DNA of 64,000 nucleotides from Crambe crambe. Lineage: Eukaryota; Porifera; Demospongiae; Poecilosclerida; Crambeidae. Within the stretch, counting starts at the first letter, position 1, and every line of letters starts with the position of its first letter. Under the pieces are notes generated by a model. The model saw only the letters and a program-made list of their open reading frames with translations. It was not told where the DNA came from and made no database searches. The position numbers and the translations under genes were made by a program. The stretch covers positions 3,877,501 through 3,941,500 of the forward strand of contig OZ004583.1 of the NCBI GenBank assembly GCA_963924555.1, given 5' to 3'. Positions 8,423 to 62,580 of the stretch are shown here, piece after piece.

Positions 8423-11400
8423 ATGTATCATTCTACTTGCCTGCTACCACTATTGCTGTTATTCTCTGCCCATGGACTGAATGTTGGTGAGTATGAATAT
8501 AAGAGAGAGTATCAACTTAGTGACTCACATCATAATTATGCAAATAGTAGCACGTGTTCGTTTTGCTCAGAGACATTATACAGTCAGGGAACAGGATCAA
8601 TTCTGTGTGCAGATCATAAATGATCTCCCAATCGATCGGCTCATTTCTGTCAGCTATTCTTTTAGTGAGTTGTATTAGAGATCATTCTTACTTCAAGGGT
8701 GTGACATGACTACATTTCTTGCATAGGCACAGTACTACTGGGAAGGGGCGGAAGTCCAGGTGATTCAAGACGGGATCTACAATTTTTTGATCCAAATTCA
8801 CATACAGCTGATATATGTTTTAATTACATGGATAACAATAATCCCTGTGAAGAAGACATTGTTGGAACAGTCAGTTTACTTAACAGCAGTTTAGTGGTCA
8901 TAGGACAACCATCTTCAGCTGTAGTCACAGTTAAAGATAATGACAGTGAGTACTTAGATACTGCTCAAATCTACATGCATATCATCCTGATATACTGCAG
9001 TGGTACGCATCACTTTTGAAAAGGATAACTATATTTTATCTGAATCACATGAGATTCAGGACAATTTTCCTGCTATCAATACTACACTTCCTACAGCTGC
9101 TGTGCAACTGAAAATCATTAAAGGTGATTCTGATACTAATCACATTACTGTCTATCTCTAATGCACTTCACACATAGCTATGTTCTTATACATTGTACTG
9201 ACTAGACTATCCTAGGTTAGCAACAAGAAAGGATGTCGTCATGGATCATAACTTAGTTGACATTGTGACCAAAACTGTGGTATTACCCCTCATTAAATGG
9301 AGTGACACCTTAGTCCTTAGTCAGCTAGTTAGCTAAGGACAAATGGATCAAGTGATAGAGTTAAGGTTATCTTTTTATTAATAACTAGTACCTGGTGCTA
9401 CCCAGTCCCTGGTGGAGCCCTCATTGTTATTCACAACAAGGACTATGCCACTGAATGAACAACGTCAACACCTCCTCTTTAGCATACAGGACGATAATAT
9501 TGCATTGGAAGAGCCAGAAGTGGTGACCTTGAAATTGGGAATCTCTCCACTGTCTTCATGCTCCAATGTCCAATTCAGCCCATACAAAATTACTAGAGTA
9601 CTCATCCTAGATGATGATGGTAAGGACTTAGCAGAAGACCATTATTTCAGGTGTGGCAAGGAAAAGTAAATTCACTCAGACTTGAGACTAAATTCTATGA
9701 GAATCAGACATAAACATTAGATAATGGCATGTGGTGAAAATATTAACACATGTTGATTAGTCATTCTAGTATAATCACTGTCTGGATCTGCCAAATTACC
9801 AAAATGCAGATGTATATACTATAGCTTTAGAGTAAAAGATATGCTATCCACCCAGACTCCTTCAATGTGAACAAATACCTGAGATTTAGCTATCAGGGTG
9901 CAGAGGTACACAGGAAGGAGTTCTCCAATGGGAGATACTGATGAACTCTTATCCAACCAAATTGAATTTCTATGTGCCAAATATTTTGGCAGCTACAGAA
10001 CAAAAACTCAACAATGGTTGGATATACCAATCTTGCAAGAACTTTCTCTAGACTTTGAGTATAGCCATAGGACTCAAAGCAAATACAGTATGTTGTCATA
10101 CAGGCCATCTTTTCTTTTGTTAGAGTTGAGTTTCTTAGAGGGTGGGTACATAGTGTACAATCATTAATTTTTACAAGGTGGGAGTCTAGCCTATGAAACA
10201 AAATGTCTATGACAGCTACAAAATAACAATTGGGATAGTATGCCAAACTTATGTTGATTGGTGTCATTTCAGTATACTTTGAACATAAGTGTTTCCATTA
10301 TTATTTCAAACAAAAATGATACCTCTGCATAATATTTGATGCTATTATATACACAGTAGTGACAGTAGGACTGAGTACAAGTGAAGGAAGAGTAAGAGAA
10401 GGAGAGAGACATAGAATATGCATTGGCATATCTGGACCCATCGCAAGGCAACTTGTACTGCTCCTTCATATCCAAAATGAAACTGCAGATGAAAGTATGT
10501 ATACATTAACAAGTTGAGTCATGACACCAAACTATTTTGATTTACTGAATACAGATGATCTAGAATTGACTTCAGATTCCATGGAGGTAACATTCTCCTC
10601 TTATTTTGAAACCTCAAGTGTAAATGCTACAGAGCAGTGTGTTGATATTGCCATTATCAATGATGGTGTCATAGAAAACGAGGAATCATTTAGAGTAGAG
10701 CTCTCACTCAAGACATTAATCCCAACAAGTCAGCGAAGCAAATTAAGAATAGCATCTTCAACATCTAGAATAATAATTGAAGATAGAAGTACGTATGAAA
10801 TTATGGTGCTAAGCAAGTACACTGTATTAATATAACATTATTATCCTAGGTACCTGTTCTATCATTGGTCTCAATCGTATGGCCTCTAATTCCTCTATTT
10901 ACATTCACGAAAGCAGATCACTTTGTTTCTCTTGTGGTGGGTGTAACTCTTCCTTATCCTGGAATATATTGTCATATAATGATCATATCTGGAGGAATAT
11001 AACTGATTTAACTTTACAGTCACAAGAAAACAAACCAGAAAGTTTATTTCTATTCTCAAATGGTACTTTACTGGTGACAAATTCTAGCTTATTCTTCTCC
11101 AAATCAGTTCCAGGGATCCTCAGCTTTAGTGAACTATCATCACAAAATCATAAACGTTCACAGTACACTGTGTACATTGGAGGTATGACATACCATGAAT
11201 TAAAGATCAATCACTCTATGCCCATACAGAACCTTTATAATTTGGCAGTTTACAGCCAGTTGGGTGTAAACTAGCATGAGATATGAGGTAAACAGGATAC
11301 TAATGTCATTTCCTCTGCCAAATAGTTCACCAACCCAACCATACCTGTAGTTGAAGATATTCCCATGCAATGATGTGAATGATGCTGGTTCACTGTATAC

Positions 11401-11799
11401 AAGTAATAGTGTTTATCTTTTTTTCCCCCCTATACACAACATACAGAGCCAGCGGAGATAATAAATTTGAATGTGTCTTCATTAGATGGATTATATACAT
11501 TCATATGCGTGTACAAAGGATCTCCTCCTGCTGAATTGAACTGGCTTATAGATTCAAGGTCAATTCCAAATGAAAACATCATCAAAAGAGTAGATAGGAT
11601 GGGGAAAAAATATTCCCAGTCAATTCTTGTGGTTAGCAATACTGATGCAAACTTTAACAAGTATGCTTGCAAAATATCCAATTCATTTGGATCAGATTTA
11701 TCACAAGCAAGTGCTCTCAGTCATGCAAATATATTACTTTCCACTTTGTATCCATTTATATATATCATTATAGTTCTTTCAATCTGTCATAATTATTAG
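8423..11799 (+). CDS. Secreted or membrane-anchored Calx-beta/Ig protein
   Basis: Nine exons: 8423-8486, 8548-8664, 8727-8945, 9001-9123, 9389-9619, 10357-10494, 10555-10788, 10850-11182 and 11447-11799 (603 aa). All eight introns are phase 1 with GT/AG ends; five are 55-62 bp. Residues 1-20 are a signal peptide (CLLPLLLLFSAHG). Three Calx-beta domains follow, two exons each (about 22-133, 134-251, 252-375), each ending in an acidic turn (VTVKDND, VLILDDD, IIIEDRS) with an EEPE or ENEESF-type strand before it. Residues 376-486 are an Ig-like or related Cys-containing beta domain; 487-585 is an Ig domain (WLIDS, NKYACKISNSFGSD). The last ~22 residues are hydrophobic, possibly a membrane anchor. 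Calx-beta domains bind calcium and occur in sponge aggregation factors and adhesion proteins, so a calcium-dependent surface role is inferred. The terminal exon could instead splice onward near 11745. Confidence 0.8.
9620..10356. other. Longest intron of the Calx-beta gene
   Basis: 737 bp, compared with ~60 bp for most introns of this gene. ORFs of 89 and 124 codons on opposite strands overlap each other and match nothing I know; I treat them as chance. Confidence 0.4.
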
Positions 11800-31380: not shown

Positions 31381-34300
31381 CTGCTTTTTGAACATAGCTT
31401 TCAGTATACCAGCTATCTCACCAAGTACCTGCAAGGAGTGATTATTTGGTAACTTACAATTTAAAGCTCAGACCTTCTGTATAAGAATTATACCAATCAC
31501 AGTATGGCCGCTAGTGGGATATGCAAAGTTTTAGTTAATAATGGAGAGCTGGGTTTTTGATGTTAAGGTTTGCAACTGTGCATGCATCAATACTGAGCAC
31601 ATGGCATTTAATATAAAAACAGCCCACACATCCACAACCCTCATTAGTAACCTTAGAAACTTCCTACCTAGTCATAAATCATTTCTGCCAGGAACACATT
31701 TTAAAACAAATTGAATAAAGGTCCCAGATGGGAAGGAACCCGTTTCAGGCCCCTTATCCTTGTCCCTCAATGAAAGAAGAAAGTCTGAACTTAGTGAATA
31801 AGGAGTTCAAGCATGCTCCATTGCATCCCTCAGCTACTGTTTGTTCTCCACCTGGCTAGCTTTGCTAGTTAAGCAGTGGTGAGTCAGCCTAATACATGGA
31901 CGGGTAACCCTGGTTGAACCTTCATCGAAAGGCTGGTACAAGTGGGATGGGTGAACCTCAACCTACAATGCAGGTTGAGACCACCTGCACTGGCTAGTTC
32001 AGGATTCTTGTCAGCCACTTGATGGTGAATTGGTTTTTAAAAAAAGAAAGAAAGAAAAATTACATACCAAATAGAAAAAAAGAAATCTAAATAAGTAATT
32101 ATCAAAGTGCATTTCTTCCCCGAGTACCTCAGTGCTTCGTTGCTATCATGGATCTCCAAAGCAACTTCGTCCTTCCCCATGCTATTAACTTGGAGCGCCT
32201 AACTCTACTTCGTTTTGGACTGTACGTCAGGTCAGAAATTGTACTACCGTCCCTATGTTGACAATCTTTACCGTTGGTATTAATAGCTAACAAAAAGGAG
32301 CTATTATCAGCTGCTTGGCTGCTTGTATTATGGAAAATATTTTATCAGGTCATAGTTGTGCTTCCTGACCTTTGCTTACTTAGCAAAATAATATTTTTAA
32401 TGATTATTGCCTTGACAGCTTCACATCTGTAATGTAAAAAAAGCATACATTGTAAATATGAATAAGAAGTAAACTTTTTTTCTTGACTATTGAAGTAGAA
32501 AAAAAAACAATGTAAAAAGGCACGTTTCTTCCCGGCGTTTTGTTGCCATCACAGATCTCTAATGCAACTTTGTCCTTCTTCATGCTATAACTTCGAGCAC
32601 CTAACTTACTTCCAGTTGACTATTGTTATATACCAAGTAGGAAAAAAAAAAAAAAGAAAAAAAGAAAAGAAATATGTAATGTAAGTAAATAATTAATTAA
32701 AGTGTGTTTCTTCCCTGATTACTTCAGTGCTTTGTTGCCATCATGGATCTCTAAAGCAATTTCGTCCATCTTCATGGTATTAACTTAGAGGTTTTGTTTA
32801 GGACTGCATCAGGCCATGTTGATGATCTTTACCACACATAATTATAAGGACCTTAATTGCAGACAGAGATGAGACTATACTAAGCAGTGTGTACAGGCAT
32901 TACGTGGTTTAGGTGAGTATCTAGCCACGTGTAGATAGGTCAAACTAGAGTTTAGTGAACACATGTACCCTGTGCAGTAGCTGTGTATGCGTGACTAGAC
33001 TATGCACTGTACATGTATTATGTACAGTAGGCCACAAAAAAAATTCCCGTTCCGTCCACAGTCACCCGTGCGTTTAATTTTCTACACCGTTAACATCAAG
33101 CATTGCACGGCTGTGCCCACCGTTCAATGTTCACGAAGAAACGATAAGAAGTATGTGGGTGAAGAAACGCTGTTAACCCTACGTAGCTAAAGCTTAAAAT
33201 TAATATAGACTAGCTATAGTCTAGTGAGCCAGCCTGGAGAACTATACGTAGCTATCTCTCTAGGCTGACTAGCTATCTCTCTAAGCTGACTAGCTTATGT
33301 TGGTACTAGAGCTAGCTAGTTCTGCACTTACAGCTAGCTATACCACCCATGTTTATGATGATGTTTTATTATCAAATTTGAAATTTTACAGACACGATGA
33401 AGGCAGAAGAAATTGTACCACCACTACTAGCATGCACGAGTAGTGAACAAGTAGCCAATAATTTAGGAATTGACGAGTCAACTGTGAAGAGAATTTGGTT
33501 TACTTTTGGTAGTCTCAAGAAAAAGGCATATATAAAAGACAAGGCATGCATGAAGCTAGCAGCTACTGCACAACTGCTGGTACTACATTTGGTGATTGAA
33601 AAACCAGGGGTATTTCTACATGAGATTCAAAGAGAACTTCATGACATGCCTTTTAGACATTGATATATCCACTACTAGTAGATTCCTTCATAACAGTGAA
33701 TTTACCAGATAAAAGTTACGTTTGGTTGCACTACAAAGAGACAAATTTTTGCGACAAAAGTTTATGCTTGATGTATCTAAATATCAGCCTGACATGTTCA
33801 TTTTTTTAGATGAAACTGGAGCAGATAGAAGAAACAGCATTAGAAAGTATGGCTATAGCATGAGGGGCAAGACTCCACAAAAGCATACTTTATTAGTCAG
33901 AGGAGAGCATGTCTCTGCTATTGGAATCATTTAATGACCTGTTAGATGTGTGTGTAGTAAAGGGCACAGTGGATGGTGACAAATTCTACTATTTTGCACT
34001 GAAGTATCTACTCCCCCATATTATGCTGTTCAACTGAGTGAACAGTGTTGTGGTTCTAGACAACTCTTTGATACACAATGTGGAAGGTATAACAGAAATG
34101 ATTGAGGAAGCTGGAGCTATAGTCCATTTTCTCCCGCCCTACTCTCCTGATTTCAACCCTATTGAGGAAACTTTTTCCAAAGTTAAGGCCGAGATGAAAC
34201 ATTATGAAGAATCTATGAATGAAGTGTCTGACATTGAAACTACTGTATTTAGTGCCTTTACAACTATTACCCCAGATGATTGCAAAGGGTGGATTCTTAA

Positions 34301-37300
34301 CAGTAGTGTATACACGTACATGTCTCAGTGACATTATTATAGCAGCATGTAATGAACTGAATTAGCTATGTTCAATAACGGGATGATTTGTCAGAGTATA
34401 GTATATAATATAATTATTGCTACACTGTTGTTTGATGATCATAATATGCGTTATATCAAGACAGGCTTTGTTTAATTGAACTCTTTAAGACTTGAGAGTA
34501 TATTTGCTTTCTGCTCATTATATTCTTTATCTGTAAGTATTCCATCATTGAAGAGTTGTTGAAGATATCTTAGCTGTTCAAAAAATTTTCATACGGAATC
34601 CAACCCTTGTCTCAGGTGACATTGCAGTAATAGATTTTTCTGTTCTTTTTCTTGTCGCTTTGATTTTGGCTTATCAGCATCTTTTTTACACCTTTTTTTA
34701 CCAACTTCTTCCTCCTCCTCCTCCTCCTCATCTGTGCGCCCATCACACCACAATGTTATTTCACCCTTAGGATATTTCCTGTACAATGGGGATTTATTAT
34801 TTCAACCTTGCAGGTGTGCTGTGGCGAAATGCTGAATAGTTGAATTATTATGTCACATTAATTCAGCTTTACAGCTCTGTCATGCAGAAATAACTCACCA
34901 ATTGAGTCAACCTCTCCCCAGGTTACCCAGTAGAATGCTGCAGTACCTGAACAGAAACATCATGACCATTGGAACCTTGTCCAGCTACACTATCACAAGA
35001 AGTTGTCATTCTCGGCATGGAATTTACACATATGCACGTGGCGCTTTCCATTGATAAAGGTACAAGAACTGTGCAAACCTCTGTACGTAGAGCTCAAGGC
35101 CTTCCTCGGAGACTGCCTGCAGGTCATCTCCCTGTCGATCTACTGAGGAACGTTTTTTGCTGGAATTACTGCGTGCTCTCATACCGTAAAAACATTTAGT
35201 AATTTCAAACTCAACTACATTTAATTGGGCTATTCAACGCAAACGCATGCTTTGCGTTTATACAGTGTTCACACATGGTTTTTTTATTATAACGCTTGAG
35301 CATTCTACTTACGTTGTACGGCAACGAAATGGGAACTTTTTTATGATGAAGACTGTATAAGCTTAGCAGCACCAGACACTGGAGCTAGCTGATAAAACTA
35401 ATTTGGCTGATAATGATCGATCAGTTAGAACTAGTTCACCGATAGACACAAACTTGAGCTTAGTTGTAGCTAGGCAGACACTTCACTGATATATACTAAA
35501 CTTGAAAAAGAATAACCATTGTAGCTTTATAGTCTAGACAGACACACTAGTACCACAGCTCAATATCTGTTCATGTCACGTCAGCTGACTTGACCATAAT
35601 TGCCAAATTAATAATAATGGTGGGTGTAGTTATGAAGTGTGTTTAATAGAAACTGCAGGATTGTTGAGTGCAGAAAGCACTATTGAACACTGTGACTGGA
35701 GCATTAGGCTACAAAGTGGAAGAAGAAGCCTCAACCAGCGCTTCACAACGTAAGTTATCCGCCAAGATGGCATTCAGACTTTACTTTTGTACACATATAT
35801 ATACATACATACCTACCTATCTACCTACACGTGCCCACCCCAATCATTTTACCCCTTGCTGCGCATGTGCGTGAATGGACCAAGAGACAGTCTCAGGGAC
35901 ATAAACAGCAGAGATGGCAGTCTAGGCCTTGCATGGAAGTGAATATTTGAAAATCAGAGGCCACTGACTAACTCTAATTTCATTTGATGTTTATATACAT
36001 AAGCTTGAATTTCAACAGTGTGGACTGTACTACCTCATTTTCTACCAGTGCCAAGGCACAAGTCTTTTTGAAGACAAACTTGTTCTACTTGGTATGTGGT
36101 TGACTCACATGTAACTGGGATTGGAAATGCCCATACAATTTTCTATAGGTGGTTTAATTGCAATATGCTATGTGCAACATTTGGGGTGAGCAGTTATCTA
36201 AGTGGCAGGCAACTGCATACACAAAAAGCTGTAATCCAAGGGCATAGCAGAAAATCAAGCTTGGTCTCATGACTAAGATTTTTAGCCATGGACCATCAAA
36301 AGTGAATCTACTGTAACACTTGACTACCACCAACCCTGCCAAAGATGCATTTGCTGGAACTTATGTGACTACTGACACCATATTAATATAATTATGTTTT
36401 ATAATCTTATGAAAATTCCCCACATCTTTAGAGATCATAACTTACGAGAAATGAATGTCCATCACTAACTTCAAAATCTGGTTTCAAAGGTGCAATGAAA
36501 CAAGCTGGCAAGATATGTCTATACATGTACTCTATAAATCCTCCGAGACCATTTTCTCCAACTGCATTGACAAAATATATTCATAGGGTGTAGAATTATT
36601 AGGTGATGGAACTAACCCCAAATTTCAATCAATTTTTTTAAAATATTGAAACATATCCTTTGAACCTATAATAGAGAGCACAGATAAATGGGCCTATAAA
36701 AATGGAATTAAATTTGATAAATGGGCTTGTCTAAATGATTCAACTCACTGCAGGATCTGGAAATCCTATGGCATTTTGTGTCAAAGTGTTCAATATTTCT
36801 TCTAATTTCTCAGAACCTTAATTAGTTAACAGTGGATATTATGTATAGGTTAGTCTCATACCTACAGTGAAAAATAGAGGCAAACTGCACATGCACTACT
36901 TTTTCCACACTACCATAATTATTTACAAGCTAAGGGCCACAGCAGAACTAGCATCTGCTGCAGAATGACGGATTCTCCTTCTACTTTTGTCATTACTCTC
37001 TTGTATGTCTTGCAAGCTCGGAGAAGTTAGGCTCTTTCAAAGGAAGACCAATGCCAAACAACTTGGATTTGTAATGGAAAAAATTTGGATTTGGATGAGC
37101 CTGTGTTTCAGCCTACCAGAACCTTCGATCACGAAGTCAGAGCCAGAAGAGTTGTATTTGTCTCATTTCTCAGAAGGTGATCAGGTTAAAAGCTTGAGTA
37201 TGAAATAAATTGTTGCTCATGAGTTCTAAACAGGATAAACTCCAGCAGTTTGGCTGGCATTTTCCTGCTAGTCTGACAGGAAAGAAGTAAAGCAGCTATT

Positions 37301-55378: not shown

Positions 55379-55449
55379 TAGTCTCGCGTGGCCAGACCCT
55401 CATCGATCCGTGCTGCAGTTGGTAAAGGGTCTGGCCACGCGAGACTAGT
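55379..55449. mobile_element. TAGTCTCGCG mini-foldback, ~70 bp
   Basis: TTAGTCTCGCGTGGCCAGAC and its complement enclose TGCTGCAGTTGGTAAAG. Relatives: 55836-55888, 55040-55125, 57300-57365, 15890-15950 and a minimal form at 25960-25985. Confidence 0.75.
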
Positions 55450-55464
55450 AACTTGCATTAATGA

Positions 55465-55610: not shown

Positions 55611-55835
55611 AGATTTTCAGGATGGTTGTCCATAAGGAATGAGAAATAGGTAGTGGCTTACAAGGACCTAAGAAACCCAATCCTTTATGTCCTATTCAAT
55701 CCATGCAGTTGTGTAAACCATAGGACAAAATGTATCCACCTATTCCTCTAATTTTCCTGACAACCAACCTGCAATGGACAGTATACTAGCAACATTAATT
55801 TTGAGCAAGCAAGTTATACGTTACTAGTCTCGCTT

Positions 55836-55888
55836 GGCCAGACCCTTTACCAACTGCAGCACGGATGAGGGTCTGGCCAGGCTAGTAT
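55836..55888. mobile_element. TAGTCTCGCn mini-foldback just upstream of KY-type gene
   Basis: GTCTCGCTTGGCCAGACCC and complement; the right end is about 75 bp before the start codon of the next gene. Confidence 0.65.
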
Positions 55889-55961
55889 AGGAGAGATCCA
55901 CCTACTGAAATTAGGGGGCGTGCCGGCCAACGCACTGACCACCTTGACCTTTAGGGAGACG

Positions 55962-58900
55962 ATGGGCGTCTGCATTTCTAAAGTTAACTTGATTGTGCAA
56001 GATCAAACAGCATCACAAGAAGAACATGAATCCATCCTAGGCCTATCTAAGAAAAACGATTATGTGAATCCAGTGATCAGTCCTTTCGCTCATGCTGGTT
56101 TTCATCCAGAGATTGTAGTAAATAAAGAAGAAGCATTTTGTTCAAAAGTTGTTCAAAAATTGAAACCTAATGTACCAGCTTCTTCAAACCAATCAGTCAA
56201 AGACTTACTGAATTCATGGGAGAAAAGTGGATTTCTCAAGGGTATCAATAACTTGGTGCTCAGTCTTCCTGTTTCAGATGTGACCACCATAGGTGAGCTT
56301 GCTCACAGTCTTACTGCCAGGAGTGTCAAACACTCTCAAGATTTAAAAGATAAAGTTTTAATCGATGTAGTTAAAGCTTATTCAATATACTTCTGGATTA
56401 TAAATAACATCTCATTTGATACTGACCATTGGAGATGTGGAAAATCCCCTCAAAAGACTTTGGAAACCCAAAAGGGAGTGTCATCAGATTATTCATCATT
56501 ATTTAGTTCCTTGTGTGGTGAAGTGGAATTACAAGCAGACAGCATCAAGGGGAATTTAAGAAGATGGAGGAGTGTTACTGGCAAAGATTTTCAACCTGAT
56601 GAAGATAATCATCACACCTGGAATAGTGTGAGTATTGTAAAGATCACCATGCAGTAGTTAGGAAACAATTTGAAGGTGTTGGATTTGTGTGATTGTGTGT
56701 GTGGGATGGTTATGACTATCCATATTATTGTTAGCCAGAGCCTCCAGTCCTTGACCCATAAATCGTAGCGTTCAACAGATTGAGACATAGTGGTTTCAGG
56801 GCCATCATAGGGCACCTAGCTGCACTCAATTGGTGTATGTATGTATGTATGTGTGTGTGTGTGTGTGCATGCACGCACGTGTGTTACATCGACCATACAA
56901 CCAGTCTTTATGATATCTAAACAGTGTTTAAATTGAGCCAATTTTTTTTTTATTCCTGGAAGTCAAGATTTGTGGCCTGTACTATATCTATAACTCTCGA
57001 ACTCGATATAATGCACACGTATTATAATTTTTTTGTCGACCATCTACATGGCTCTGTGTCCATGGTGTAGCTAGCTACAGTACTAGTCTACATGTCTTGT
57101 AGAGTGCATCTGTGCAATCATCAGGCCATCTCCAACCAGTATTTTTATATGCACATGCAGGCATTGATAATTGCTGGAGTGAGTGGAGTGTATGCTTCTT
57201 GTCAACTAAACTGACAGATACTGCTCACTCAATGATATGGAATGCACATGCCAATTTATGGATGATTCAATTCAAAGTGACATGATACTCAATACCTCTT
57301 TAGTCTCACAGGCTAACCCTTTACCAACCCAAGGGAAGAGGAAAGGGTCTGGTCAAACTAGCATGAGCATTTCATTGTACTGGTCCAGGAATTTCTTTGA
57401 CCAATAATTATTTCCGTGTAATGAATAATGTTAAGAATAAATTGGTGTGTAAGTTTAGTCATACGGGCATGAACTAGTGATTGATCAAGAGCGAACTGCC
57501 GCTGCTGGCTTGCTCTAGCTACTAAGCCATAAGAAGTTGCTAGTTGTGCCGCTGCGAGACTACATAGCAGCTACTGTGAAATCCATACCATCAGGCTCAG
57601 AAGGTGGAAGAGAAGGTCTTTAACTTGCATGCAGCGTAGATCTATTGTAGCACTATTCCATGCATGAATTATGTGACACACGCAAATTATCAGCACATTC
57701 TAGTGTGTGATACTATTAATGTTAACATTTGCATTCTTAGTAGCTCTGTACTAGGGCAGTGTGCAACATTGAGTCACAGCGAGTGAGCAAGCATTTGAGT
57801 TGTGGTTCAAGTCCTTGTGCTACTTTGAAGATTTTATTATGAGTTATGTAAGTGGCAGGCTGCTGCATACATTGCTTACCATAAAGTACTTAGATAAGCC
57901 TAGTGCCTACAATCAACTTAAATGACCTAAGACTGTAGAAATCAATCAAGGCAATTACAATTCATTGCACTTGGTGCTACTATTGCAGGACAGACACCTA
58001 CCATATTGTACATACGCCTGGGGCATTTTGAAGTGTAGACCACCTATATATGTACACACAAATGAGTGCAAAGCTAAATAAAAAGGTTAAATAGGGATAG
58101 CCTGGGCTGTATAATGTACTGCAGCCTTGTATGAAAACAATCCCTACATTTACATCCACTCCCTATAGCTACATGAGGCTGCAGTACATTATATCTAACT
58201 ATTTTAGTGTCGCTGCTTTCACTTAGTGCCCGTTGTCCATAGCAGTGGGCACTAAGTAGCTCACTTAGTGCCCCGCCTCTAAGGGCATGGTTGTTTCTAT
58301 GGAGTGTTTTTTATTGTGAATGCAGATGGCAATGGCGTTTTTTCCTGCTTGAACAGGTATAAAACTCTTTCCTCGCACTTCCTAGAACTAGGCTAGAGTA
58401 AGATAGTCTAAATTAGTTAGACACCTCAACCAATGGGATCTACAACATTTAAGAGACCCTCAGGCCCTTAGTAGTGACCTCGCTGCCCTCAGTCACTACA
58501 GCCCAGGGCCGTAGATCCCTTGGTCTTGATGTTTAACTATTATTTAGACACCCACAGGGAGGGTGCTACTAAGGGCCTGAGGGTGTCTAAATAACTTATA
58601 CCATTGGTTGAATTGTCTAACTACCACAATAGGTTGATGTACATATACTTCTTTTCCACATGCCAGGTAAGTTCATGTGGATCTGACTTGGCAACTCGTA
58701 CTCATATGCATACTCTCATTTTGTACTCATGAGATAACTGAATTGGCCATAAGCAGAAACTAATATAAATATGGGACACAGATAACAGTACAATAATTTT
58801 CTAAATGCTTTATAATTTTTATAACAATTTGTAGCTAGGTCATCCTTCAACAGGAAAGGAACAGTTGAAGGCCCCTTTCTTTCAGTCAAAGTTGCTCCCA

Positions 58901-61900
58901 AAATTAGCTTTGGTGGTTGAAGTCCTTGATTGAAATATTTAACAAATTTCCTTGCCATACATAATTATCAGCAGAATTTTGAATTCCTTTCAGTCAAACC
59001 ATTTCAGTTGCTCATGGTGGTTGAAGTCCTTGTTGCCAAATGGAAATTTGATTTTCCAGCAAATTTTCTGGCCATACATAAAATTGTTAACTCTGCAAGT
59101 ATGAAGTCTAGTATGAGTGTAACAAGTTGAATATAATTATAGCTGTGATATCTCTACTCTTGAGGAACAGAATTAAGAACTGATAACTGTAACATGCTGA
59201 TCCTATGGTTATGAAGAAATAGAATAATAGTCAATTTGCTTTGTGATCTTTTCAAATGTCTCAAGGTTCTTCCTCTTCTATAGAGATGCAGCAGCTCACT
59301 TTTAATAGAAAAGATTGCAGCCAGTTGTGGATTTATTCAGAAATACTTGAGTGGATCACAAGATGTGGTTGTCTAAGAAGATGATAATAAAGAAGAAACT
59401 TAGGTGCTTGGAGTATTTAAGCATGGTCCTGAAACTTCTGCACTTTGATGATGTGTCTAGTAATACTCTAAGTGGAAGAACTGGAATTTGACTTCAGCTA
59501 TTTTCTCCCTCGTGAATCATCATTTTTTTCTACTCATCTATCCCCGAAAGAGTCAATGCAAAAGGAGACACTACAGGACATTATCGGAGCCATTTTATTT
59601 TGATAATGCAGTTGTAGACAACACACTTTCTGAGCTTCCCACTGAAGAAGAAATGATTGAAGGAATCTGTTATAAGCCCTTTCATTTGCATTTCACTTGC
59701 CAATTTTAGACAAAGTATTCTATTAGCTATTAAAGGAAAAACAAACCAAACAAAAAATAATTATATTTTTGTGGAATGAAAAAACAAATAAATAAACAAC
59801 AACAACAAACTAGGTGGAAGGAAATGGGTCAATCTTTATTCAGCCTACACATACGTACGTTACACAATGATATGGTAGCTGAAGCTACCCATAGCTTATA
59901 GGTATAGGTGTGACAGGTAGGTTTGTTAGCTGGATACATAACCTCATTTTCTTCCTTCATCCCTACCCTTGTTTGCTTACTTTTTTCTTTTGTTTTATTT
60001 TTATTTAGGAATGTTTTTTTCCCTTTCGTATTATTATAGCTATATAGGTAGCTAGCACATTGTCCACAAGATTTATGACTCCCAAAGATTTTCCTGGCAT
60101 GATTATACACAAAAAATAAGTAAGCATAATCATTTTGTATCATTCCTGCTGTACCATTTCTACAAGGTATTATTTTTTGAAGTAATGATAATGTGATTAT
60201 TCTCTCCAATGTTTAGGTGATATTAGGAGATCAGACGATAATTTTGATCGACTGTATGTTGGGGAGTGGTTACGTTAATTCATCATCGAAATTTGTGAAA
60301 GAGAGTAATGTGTACTATTTTGGTGTGTCCCCACAACATCTTATTCTCACTCACTGGCCAACTAATCCATCACAACAGTTCCTAAATTCTCCTTTGTCAC
60401 TTCAGACCATATCTTCAATCATTCCAGTCCCTATAGCTACTCTAAGCTATGGTATTCAGCCTCTGTGCTGGGCTGAAGTTATCCCAATATTGGAATCTTC
60501 TCCAGATCCTGTGATAGCAGTATCTTTCAATTTGAATAAAAACAGCAAAAGCAATGATGTGTACGTTAGTGCTAAGTTGCTATTGCAGTCACAAGTCACT
60601 CTATCTGATCACGATGATGAACTTCAACGTTGTATATATATTGTGAAAAGTGATAATGAATATAAAATTGAAGCTGCTTTAGCCACACCAGGGATATTTT
60701 ATCTAAATATATATTTATGTAGCAAGCTGAATGATCATAAACATATTCTTTGTTTATCATATACAATTGAATCAAAACTGAAACACAGAGAGAAGATAGG
60801 ATATCCACATATATTTACCATATCAGCTGAAGCCTTTGATTTTAAACCTCTACATTGGAATGAAAATAGGAAATCATATGTTTGCATCAATACAGGTGGA
60901 TTATTTTCACTGACATTTGAATCAAGCTTGAATGCATCGTTTTCTCACTATCTCATGCAAGGAAAAGTTAATTCCAATGTATCAAACCCAGGTGGTGTCC
61001 ATCGTCACAACACATTAATAGTTGGAAATAAACAAAAGCTCCACAAGTTACTAGTAGCATTTCCACACGAAGGATGGTGGACGATTTATCTTGCTGTTAC
61101 CAGTGAGGTCGGAAACGAGGACACGATCAGTGGTTACACTCTATTACTAAATTATCATATTTATGCTGCAAAAGATTCAAAGCATGTTTCCTACCCACGG
61201 ATCTTATTGCCACATAAATTGTTTTTTGATATGAATCCTATATCTGCTACAGGTAATGATTTATTGATGATTCCATTTGCTTCATCAGAAGTTCTTGAAT
61301 TCCATGATTATCTCACTTTAGAGCACCCAACAGGTGAATCATGGGAAGGATTCAGCAGAATAGATCCGAATGATCATTATGATGATGAAAACTTGAATTA
61401 TTACAAATTAAATATTTTATTCCCAAGACCAGGAACGTGGTTTGTACATGTTTTTGGTAAGCTCGGCCATGAAGTATTACACAAAAATTTATTTGAATTG
61501 AAAATAACAGTTGAAGGATCAAAATTTGACACTGTTTTGGCACAAAAGACTGATAATAATCTTGATATAAATTTCCTTGATAATGGTATTGTATCATTTA
61601 CAGATGGTGAACCGCTGTCATTCAAATTTATTGGCCCTCCTTCAGGGATAGAATTCATTCAGGAACTCAAATCACCAAGTGATACTTTAGTTGATTATTG
61701 CACTATTTTAATGTCCCCAGATGAAGATATAAAAACAGAGGAGTGGTCTATTTACACATTGAATGCTATTTTTCCAGAACCAGGAAAGTGGACAGTTGAA
61801 GTCTATGCTACGAAAACAGGCTGTGATAGCTTCAATCTTGTATTACAAGTAAAATTATTCATCAAAAAACCCATCGTTGGGTACTGTTATCCTAAAATCT

Positions 61901-62580
61901 TTCCTGCATTCCGTAATTTTAATCTGAATATGCTACCAAGTAATGCTCTACTTCCATTGAATTGTAGTGCTGAATTGAAATTGCCATTTCAAGCACCTAC
62001 AACTTCACACTTCATATGTAGGTTGCAAAGTGAACAAACTGGTGATTTGCAGCAATATGGATTTATCTATTATAGACCAGACTCTCAAGAGAGAATCCTG
62101 CACTTGATATTTCCAGAAGTCAGACATTGGCTGTTACACCTTTATGCAAAACAATCTACACAAGAGGAGTATTCACCAGTATTAGAGCTCTCAATCAGTA
62201 ACATTGAAGCTATGAACAACTTTTCTTTTCCTTTATTATATGGATATCATCATGAAATCTACTTTGATCCAAATGACCTTCCACTTCCATCGTTAGTAAC
62301 TGTGGGTACAAAACTAACTGATTTAGTTATCAAATTCTACAGTCACCATGATATCGAGTTTAAACATTATGCTAGAGTTGAAAACAGGAGTGAAGAATCT
62401 ATTTTTGAAAATGTACTTACACGCATGATGTCAAACATTCAAACTGGCTTGCATCAACTTCAGGTGGAGGTTGATACTAGTGGAGACTGGATGGTTTTCT
62501 TGTATGCACAGAGTGCTAAAAAATCTGGTGATTGGATGTTAGTAATGCAGCACACATTCTCAGCTGTTAGAATTAACTGA
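55962..62580 (+). CDS. KY-type transglutaminase-like protein with Cys-to-Ser core
   Basis: Two exons, 55962-56627 and 60217-62580, joined in phase 0 (donor GTGAGT, acceptor TTTAG): 1009 aa. The chosen ATG is the first in frame, with A at -3 and G at +4. The N-terminus MGVCISK fits N-myristoylation (Gly2, Ser6) with a nearby palmitoylatable Cys4. Residues ~120-290 match the transglutaminase-like core of KY/hillarin proteins: YFWIINNISFD; KGVSSDYSSLF at 171-181, where the nucleophile Cys is Ser174; HHTWNS with His218; LIDCMLGSG with Asp234; YYFGVSPQHLILTHWP. Beyond it, six ~120-residue beta-rich modules recur, marked by FPHEGWWTIYL, FPRPGTWFVHV, FPEPGKWTVEV, FPEVRHWLLHL and similar. KY proteins act in cytoskeletal and muscle scaffold maintenance; here a membrane-tethered, possibly non-proteolytic scaffold is inferred. 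Confidence 0.85.
57753..58045. mobile_element. Copy 3 of the GGGCAATG...GCATTTTGG element
   Basis: TAGGGCAGTGTGCAACATTG at left, GGGGCATTTTGAAGTGTAGAC at right; shortest of the three copies. Confidence 0.65.
58073..58200. mobile_element. Degenerate hairpin MITE (relative of 24971)
   Basis: AATGTACTGCAGCC and TGCAGTACATTAT form the arms around AATCCCTACATTTACATCCAC; the outer AAATAAAAAGGTTAAATAGG matches sequence next to the copy at 24971-25120. Confidence 0.6.
58405..58620. mobile_element. Foldback element (relative of 22850)
   Basis: Nested inverted segments: TTAGTTAGACACCTCAACCA at left, GGTTGAATTGTCTAACTA at right, with GGCCTGAGGGTGTCTAAATA inside. Confidence 0.6.
58873..59080. repeat. 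Two tandem degenerate ~105-bp units
   Basis: Both units run CTTTCAGTCAAA, GGTGGTTGAAGTCCTTG, AAATTT, GCCATACATAA. The overlapping 66- and 80-codon ORFs translate the repeat. Confidence 0.6.

What the first reader, a model, noticed from the sequence alone, without database searches (positions are those of the whole stretch)
55962..62580. KY-type transglutaminase fold with Ser in place of the catalytic Cys
The alignable core keeps the His (H218 in HHTWNS) and Asp (D234 in LIDCMLGSG), but the motif that normally reads VCxGY reads V-S174-S-D-Y. Transglutaminase-like enzymes use that Cys as nucleophile. This could be a pseudoenzyme scaffold or a Ser-based variant. The rest of the frame is intact over 1009 codons, so decay is unlikely.
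Basis: partly seen in the sequence, partly recalled or inferred. Interest (0 to 1): 0.75.

Follow-up and report, generated by a model that had tools for sequence, protein, structure and literature searches.

The report
KY-type transglutaminase-fold protein lacking catalytic cysteine
This is an intact gene for a transglutaminase-fold protein whose active-site cysteine has become serine; together with other changed active-site residues this makes it most likely a non-enzymatic scaffold, a kind of change already seen elsewhere in the superfamily.

Summary
A two-exon frame (55962-56627 joined to 60217-62580; 1009 residues) has S174 (TCA, 56481-56483) on the catalytic Cys column, with H218 and D234 kept. 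The joined protein matches a bacterial KY-type profile at 107.5 bits, E 1.4e-31, and carries Ig-like_KY modules. TCA is at least two substitutions from a Cys codon, and no alternative Cys exon was found in the window.

Of 151 bacterial KY-type hits (100 bits or more, residue present), 8 lack the Cys (5 Ala, 2 Glu, 1 Gly, no Ser); 7 of these keep His and 8 keep Asp, so keeping them does not show catalysis. The Thr after the Asp is lost in 8 of 8 Cys-less (three similarity groups) but 2 of 143 Cys-bearing domains; the window has lost it too.

Precedents exist: axonemal FAP246 aligns Ser to this column, fungal Cyk3 lacks the Cys, menin has Ser. Fixation in orthologues, dN/dS and the sponge origin could not be tested; no Cys-bearing animal KY control was available.

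The parts
55962..56627 (+). Exon 1: N-terminal tail, helical lead-in and first half of the transglutaminase-fold domain (residues 1-222)
   Evidence: Transglut_core 9.9e-7, residues 137-220; AlphaFold2; ten-residue block means 86-97 pLDDT over residues 81-200, mean of whole model 72.1
55962..55982 (+). Start MGVCISK with A at -3 and G at +4; fits the N-myristoylation consensus MGxxxS with a nearby Cys
   Evidence: Sequence; the consensus motifs are recalled, not tested by any search
56481..56483 (+). Codon TCA for S174, on the catalytic Cys column, first residue of helix 174-187 in the model
56613..56615 (+). Codon for H218 (HHTWN), catalytic His column
56628..60216 (+). Intron (GT...AG, 3.6 kb); no alternative Cys-motif exon found
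   Evidence: the one motif hit, at 59195, contains a stop codon; no profile match over the inclusion threshold in the intron
60217..62580 (+). Exon 2: second half of the transglutaminase-fold domain, Ig-like_KY modules, stop codon
   Evidence: (Ig-like_KY 5.5e-22, three stretches)
60250..60252 (+). Codon for D234 (LIDCML), catalytic Asp column; Met-Leu two and three residues on, where relatives have Thr-Trp
60451..60789 (+). Ig-like module 1 (residues 301-413)
   Evidence: Ig-like_KY 29 bits, cut-off 27; weak in the internal repeat test (5.4 against best shuffle 3.9)
60826..61164 (+). Ig-like module 2 (residues 426-538)
   Evidence: 19.0 bits, best of 200 shuffles 6.8; no Pfam match for its slice
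61189..61527 (+). Ig-like module 3 (residues 547-659)
   Evidence: 25.0 bits, best shuffle 7.4; no Pfam match for its slice
61540..61878 (+). Ig-like module 4 (residues 664-776)
   Evidence: 24.8 bits, best shuffle 6.8; its slice matches only DUF2914, below that family's cut-off
61879..62217 (+). Ig-like module 5 (residues 777-889)
   Evidence: Ig-like_KY 30.3 bits, cut-off 27; 12.3 bits, best shuffle 3.3
62236..62574 (+). Ig-like module 6 (residues 896-1008)
   Evidence: 18.9 bits, best shuffle 6.5; no Pfam match for its slice

Best explanation
The gene encodes a catalytically inactive KY-type transglutaminase-fold protein. Shown by computation: the fold, Ig-like_KY modules behind it, Ser at the nucleophile position, and further changes at columns that are near-invariant in Cys-bearing relatives. 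Inferred: the domain no longer forms the acyl-enzyme intermediate; its kept groove (His, Trp, Asn, Asp) and the chain of about six Ig-like modules serve for protein binding, perhaps at a membrane through an acylated N-terminus, in a structural or cytoskeletal role comparable to FAP246 in the axoneme or Cyk3 at the division ring.
For: Ser on the Cys column, at the start of the core helix in the model. Without the Cys column the window differs at 5 of 17 near-invariant columns; 5 or more in 1 of 143 Cys-bearing domains and in 7 of 8 Cys-less ones (recounted from the rows). The Thr after the Asp is lost in 8 of 8 Cys-less domains (three similarity groups) and 2 of 143 Cys-bearing ones; Thr and Trp both in 7 of 8 against 1 of 143; both are lost here. 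His is kept in 7 of 8 and Asp in 8 of 8 Cys-less bacterial domains, so keeping them does not require catalysis. FAP246, an axonemal protein, is the best structural match of the exon 2 model (E 1.1e-4, probability 1.00), ranks fourth for the exon 1 model (E 0.095, probability 0.99), and aligns Ser566 to the Cys column. Fungal Cyk3 lacks the Cys, keeps His and Asp, and a double mutant of these two fails in a sensitised strain (PMC4758748, passages).
Against: No Cys-bearing animal KY protein was available as a control, so some changed columns may reflect animal-bacterial distance: 1 of 5 Cys-bearing domains at 100-110 bits, and 9 of 54 at 60-100 bits, show 5 or more changes. The eight Cys-less domains represent only about three independent losses. 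FAP246 keeps the Thr, and one paper counts it among C1b proteins with enzymatic domains (PMC9113940, passages). Cys-to-Ser mutants of two papain-like enzymes keep non-negligible activity (PMC10318531, section 6). There are no expression, binding or activity data; the membrane anchor rests on a recalled motif.
Confidence: 0.8

Rival explanations
1. A Ser-His-Asp enzyme: S174 replaces the thiol and the domain works as a serine hydrolase or acyltransferase, helped by the added acidic D176.
For: Ser, His and Asp are in register. Conserved Ser beside the two other residues is catalogued for menin, APC5867, DUF2145, DUF2272 and DUF3750, with activity proposed for negatively charged pockets (PMC10318531, section 6). 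FAP246 also aligns Ser with His and Asp.
Against: Residues that go together with the Cys in bacteria (Thr and Trp after the Asp) are lost as well. Asp at the +2 position also occurs with an intact Cys, in 3 of 117 bacterial domains, so it is no special adaptation. His and Asp survive where the nucleophile is Ala or Glu. The passages seen on FAP246 mention no transglutaminase or peptidase activity of it.
Confidence: 0.09
2. A gene in early decay: the substitution is one sign of a relaxed, non-functional paralogue.
For: Several conserved columns have changed; the 5' flank holds foldback repeats; no orthologue or expression was available to show constraint.
Against: Both exons are fully open over 1009 codons with GT-AG splice sites. 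Ig-like modules match each other and, in two slices of seven, Pfam. H218, W220, N221, D234 and the His-x-Pro motif are kept. TCA lies at least two substitutions from any Cys codon, so the change is not a fresh single hit.
Confidence: 0.07
3. Sequencing or assembly error, or a missed alternative exon that supplies the Cys.
For: Only one sequence of the locus is available.
Against: TCA to TGT or TGC needs two changes; the nine one-base neighbours of TCA code for Ser, Thr, Pro, Ala, Leu or stop. S174 lies well inside exon 1, and the intron holds no profile match over the inclusion threshold.
Confidence: 0.02

Closest known systems
FAP246 (Chlamydomonas ciliary central apparatus, PDB 7n6g and 7sqc)
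   Same: Its domain matches the bacterial KY-type profile (2.2e-19); Ser566 aligns to the catalytic Cys at the edge of the local alignment, with His and Asp kept; top structural match of the exon 2 model (E 1.1e-4, TMq 0.43, rmsd 9.9)
   Different: FAP246 has LRR and EF-hand regions (table in PMC7999657, passage), which Pfam does not find here; it keeps the Thr after the Asp; a close tie is not supported (tree grouping 0.757, gone without the Ser column and in 2 of 20 bootstraps)
KY (kyphoscoliosis peptidase), vertebrate
   Same: Transglutaminase-like protein; Pfam's Ig-like_KY domain, matched here, bears its name
   Different: Vertebrate KY keeps the putative catalytic residues although no activity has been shown (PMC6078408, passages); no KY sequence was compared directly here
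Cyk3 (fungal cytokinesis protein)
   Same: Keeps His and Asp, lacks the catalytic Cys, and the domain still matters (PMC4758748, passages)
   Different: Cyk3 has an SH3 domain, not found here
Menin, DUF2272, DUF2145, DUF3750, APC5867
   Same: Papain-like fold with conserved Ser in place of Cys next to the two other residues (PMC10318531, section 6)
   Different: Different families; no Pfam match to the four that are Pfam families
Bacterial KY-type proteins with Ig-like_KY (L001-L004)
   Same: Transglut_core and Ig-like_KY in one frame in the four full frames scanned; the joined window protein matches their profile at 1.4e-31
   Different: 143 of 151 hits of 100 bits or more with a residue there keep the Cys; each of the five sequences scanned has one Ig-like_KY stretch, not a chain

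Membership tests
Transglut_core (PF01841) fold | Score above Pfam's gathering cut-off | tested here: met
   29.5 bits against 23 on exon 1 alone
Active transglutaminase-like cysteine enzyme | Catalytic Cys at the start of the core helix | tested here: not met
   Ser at that column and at the start of helix 174-187 in the model
Active transglutaminase-like cysteine enzyme | Catalytic His and Asp | tested here: met
   H218 and D234 in register
Active transglutaminase-like cysteine enzyme | Enzymatic activity | not testable with these tools
   Needs protein
KY-type proteins | Ig-like_KY domain (PF23265) behind the transglutaminase-fold domain | tested here: met
   78.7 bits against 27, three stretches
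KY-type proteins | Match to a KY-type domain profile across both exons | tested here: met
   107.5 bits, E 1.4e-31, profile positions 30-192
Vertebrate KY orthologue | Orthology by tree with animal KY proteins | not testable with these tools
   No animal KY sequence was obtained; the collections searched are prokaryotic, viral and plasmid, plus PDB chains
FAP246 | LRR and EF-hand regions around the domain | tested here: not met
   No such Pfam matches in either exon
Cyk3 | SH3 domain | tested here: not met
   No Pfam match
Menin (PF05053) | Pfam match | tested here: not met
   No match

The most novel reading that the evidence does not exclude
A working Ser-His-Asp transglutaminase-fold enzyme of the KY type: the thiol was replaced by a hydroxyl and the pocket remodelled (Asp at +2, Thr-Trp replaced) so that it acts as a serine hydrolase or acyltransferase. 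The same Ser in algal FAP246 would then be a parallel case.
Probability: 0.08. Interest if true: 0.75.

Novelty: new member of a known kind. Interest (0 to 1): 0.36.

Why it matters
Loss of the nucleophile with His and Asp kept recurs across KY-type and related domains (bacterial proteins here, algal FAP246, fungal Cyk3). The link found here between loss of the Cys and loss of the Thr after the Asp, if it holds in animals, gives a simple sequence test for inactive members. It fits the view that this fold was repeatedly reused as a binding scaffold, which bears on why no enzyme activity has been shown for KY in muscle.

Tried and rejected
Viral-contig scans with each exon and with a mixed alignment found no relative; exon 2 as protein against phages and the locus as DNA against plasmids gave no match. 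First tallies suggested an invariant Cys (80 of 80; 196 of 196 with a residue). That was partly an effect of holding only the best-scoring loci and of one Cys-bearing probe peptide among six; fetching 23 further matches and a new search showed Cys-less members, so the claim was dropped. A tree grouped the window with FAP246 (support 0.757), but the grouping vanished without the Ser column and appeared in 2 of 20 bootstraps, so common descent of the Ser is not claimed. Taken as chance or as generic similarity: a Rho exchange factor (E 0.45); FAST_1, DUF553, YtkA, DUF2914 and PPC, all below their cut-offs; FslC. A search for KY with sponge gave no paper. The listings were seen as titles and abstract starts; from them I opened only PMC6078408 and PMC10318531, and nothing I saw treated a Cys-less KY protein. 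dN/dS and orthologue fixation could not be done.

Full report
What is there. Exon 1 (55962-56627) and exon 2 (60217-62580) join across a 3.6 kb GT-AG intron into 1009 residues. S174 is TCA at 56481-56483, H218 is at 56613-56615 and D234 at 60250-60252. By base composition the chance of such open frames is about 7e-8 for exon 1 and 1e-25 for exon 2. Pfam finds Transglut_core in exon 1 (29.5 bits, cut-off 23) and Ig-like_KY in exon 2 (78.7 bits, cut-off 27, three stretches).

Family. No genome is held for the window, and no relative was found in viral contigs, phages (exon 2 only) or plasmids (DNA). A profile of 33 of them (A2) scores the exon 1 frame at 1.7e-18 and the exon 2 frame at 7.4e-10, with nothing else in the window over the inclusion threshold. 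The joined protein scores 107.5 bits, E 1.4e-31. The four full bacterial frames scanned (L001-L004) carry Transglut_core and Ig-like_KY; a fifth, partial one (L164) begins after the core and has Ig-like_KY. Of the 25 genomes of loci searched for Ig-like_KY, 9 have a match over the cut-off, against 0 of 14 control genomes.

Active site. In the alignment with 80 bacterial domains the window has Ser where 80 of 80 have Cys, while H218, W220 and D234 agree with 80 of 80. In the AlphaFold2 model of exon 1 the core is confident (ten-residue block means 86-97 pLDDT over residues 81-200; 72.1 over the whole model), and S174 is the first residue of helix 174-187. [quoted passage not shown] In the exon 2 model D234 (residue 12) follows a strand at 7-11.

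Is the Cys ever lost? The first tallies, limited to the best-scoring loci, showed Cys without exception. I then fetched the remaining matches above 80 bits, the search in the phylum of L002's genome (23 regions), and ran one more class-level search (294 genomes). Of 234 non-redundant bacterial hits, 153 score 100 bits or more: Cys 143, Ala 5, Glu 2, Gly 1, gap 2; the 81 hits below 100 bits have Cys. No bacterial hit has Ser. The eight Cys-less domains form three groups by similarity: six at 69-92% identity and two singletons. His is kept in 7 of 8 and Asp in 8 of 8. Not every match of every search was fetched; one search listed 65 matches, of which 30 became loci, and weak matches were left out.

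A signature that goes with the loss. Eighteen columns are at least 85% one residue among Cys-bearing domains; the window differs at 6 of them, the Cys column included. Leaving that column out, the window differs at 5 of 17. Five or more changes occur in 1 of 143 Cys-bearing domains and in 7 of 8 Cys-less ones (recounted from the rows). The Thr two residues after the Asp is lost in 8 of 8 Cys-less domains (three groups of three) but in 2 of 143 Cys-bearing ones; Thr and the following Trp are both lost in 7 of 8 against 1 of 143. The window has Met-Leu there. Against this: the only Cys-bearing case with 5 or more changes is one of five at 100-110 bits, the score range of the window, and 9 of 54 at 60-100 bits reach it too, so distance explains part of the change count; the Thr signal is the stronger one. 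A control with Cys-bearing animal KY proteins is missing.

Precedents. FAP246 of the ciliary central apparatus matches the same profile (2.2e-19). Searches with L001 align its Ser566 to the Cys, at the edge of the local alignment, with His and Asp kept; the profile alignment starts four columns later in the same register. It is the best match of the exon 2 model among solved structures (E 1.1e-4, probability 1.00, TMq 0.43, rmsd 9.9). For the exon 1 model no match reaches E 0.001; 3isr leads (8.6e-3), and FAP246 is fourth (0.095, probability 0.99) with the highest TMq of the rows shown, 0.43. Its papers, seen in passages, place it in the C1b arm; one table lists LRR, TGC and EF-hand, another paper gives it a guanylate kinase domain and counts it among C1b proteins with enzymatic domains. 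A search for FAP246 with transglutaminase gave no paper. Fungal Cyk3 lacks the Cys, and its His and Asp matter (PMC4758748, passages). Vertebrate KY keeps the putative residues, yet no activity has been shown (PMC6078408, passages). A survey lists menin and four other families with Ser for Cys and calls the idea of their activity speculative (PMC10318531, section 6).

Rest of the protein. A motif scan shows six sites 113-125 residues apart. In a leave-one-out profile test on modules cut around those sites, so chosen by the motif itself, modules 2-6 score 12.3-25.0 bits against at most 7.4 for shuffles; module 1 scores 5.4 against 3.9 but matches Ig-like_KY directly. Two of seven slices pass Pfam's cut-off. 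The start MGVCISK fits the recalled N-myristoylation consensus with a nearby Cys, and the start codon has A at -3 and G at +4; residues 1-53 are modelled at low confidence. No strongly hydrophobic segment stands out (best 19-residue mean 1.3).

Verdict. The best reading is a KY-type pseudoenzyme used as a binding scaffold, perhaps membrane-tethered. A Ser-based enzyme is not excluded but has no positive support. It is a new member of a known kind: Cys-less transglutaminase-fold proteins that keep His and Asp.

Noticed in passing
L206, L210, L226, L227, L228, L230: A bacterial KY-type group (69-92% identical) with Ala or Glu in place of the Cys, His and Asp kept, and LVDLPVYK around the Asp: it looks like a conserved pseudoenzyme subfamily.
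   Followed up: partly
L205 and L214: Two further Cys-less bacterial KY-type domains (Ala; Gly with the His also lost), each about 20% identical to the others.
   Followed up: partly
window 55379-55452 and 55820-55890: Two copies of a foldback repeat (22-23 nt arms) upstream of the start codon; 47 nt of one is inverted in the other at 98%. It looks like a small mobile element.
   Followed up: no
window 34038-34328: DDE_3 transposase fragment (1.3e-16).
   Followed up: no
window 10518-10832 and 11410-11796: Reading frames with a Calx-beta match below its cut-off and an Ig I-set match above it, possibly exons of a large adhesion-type gene.
   Followed up: no
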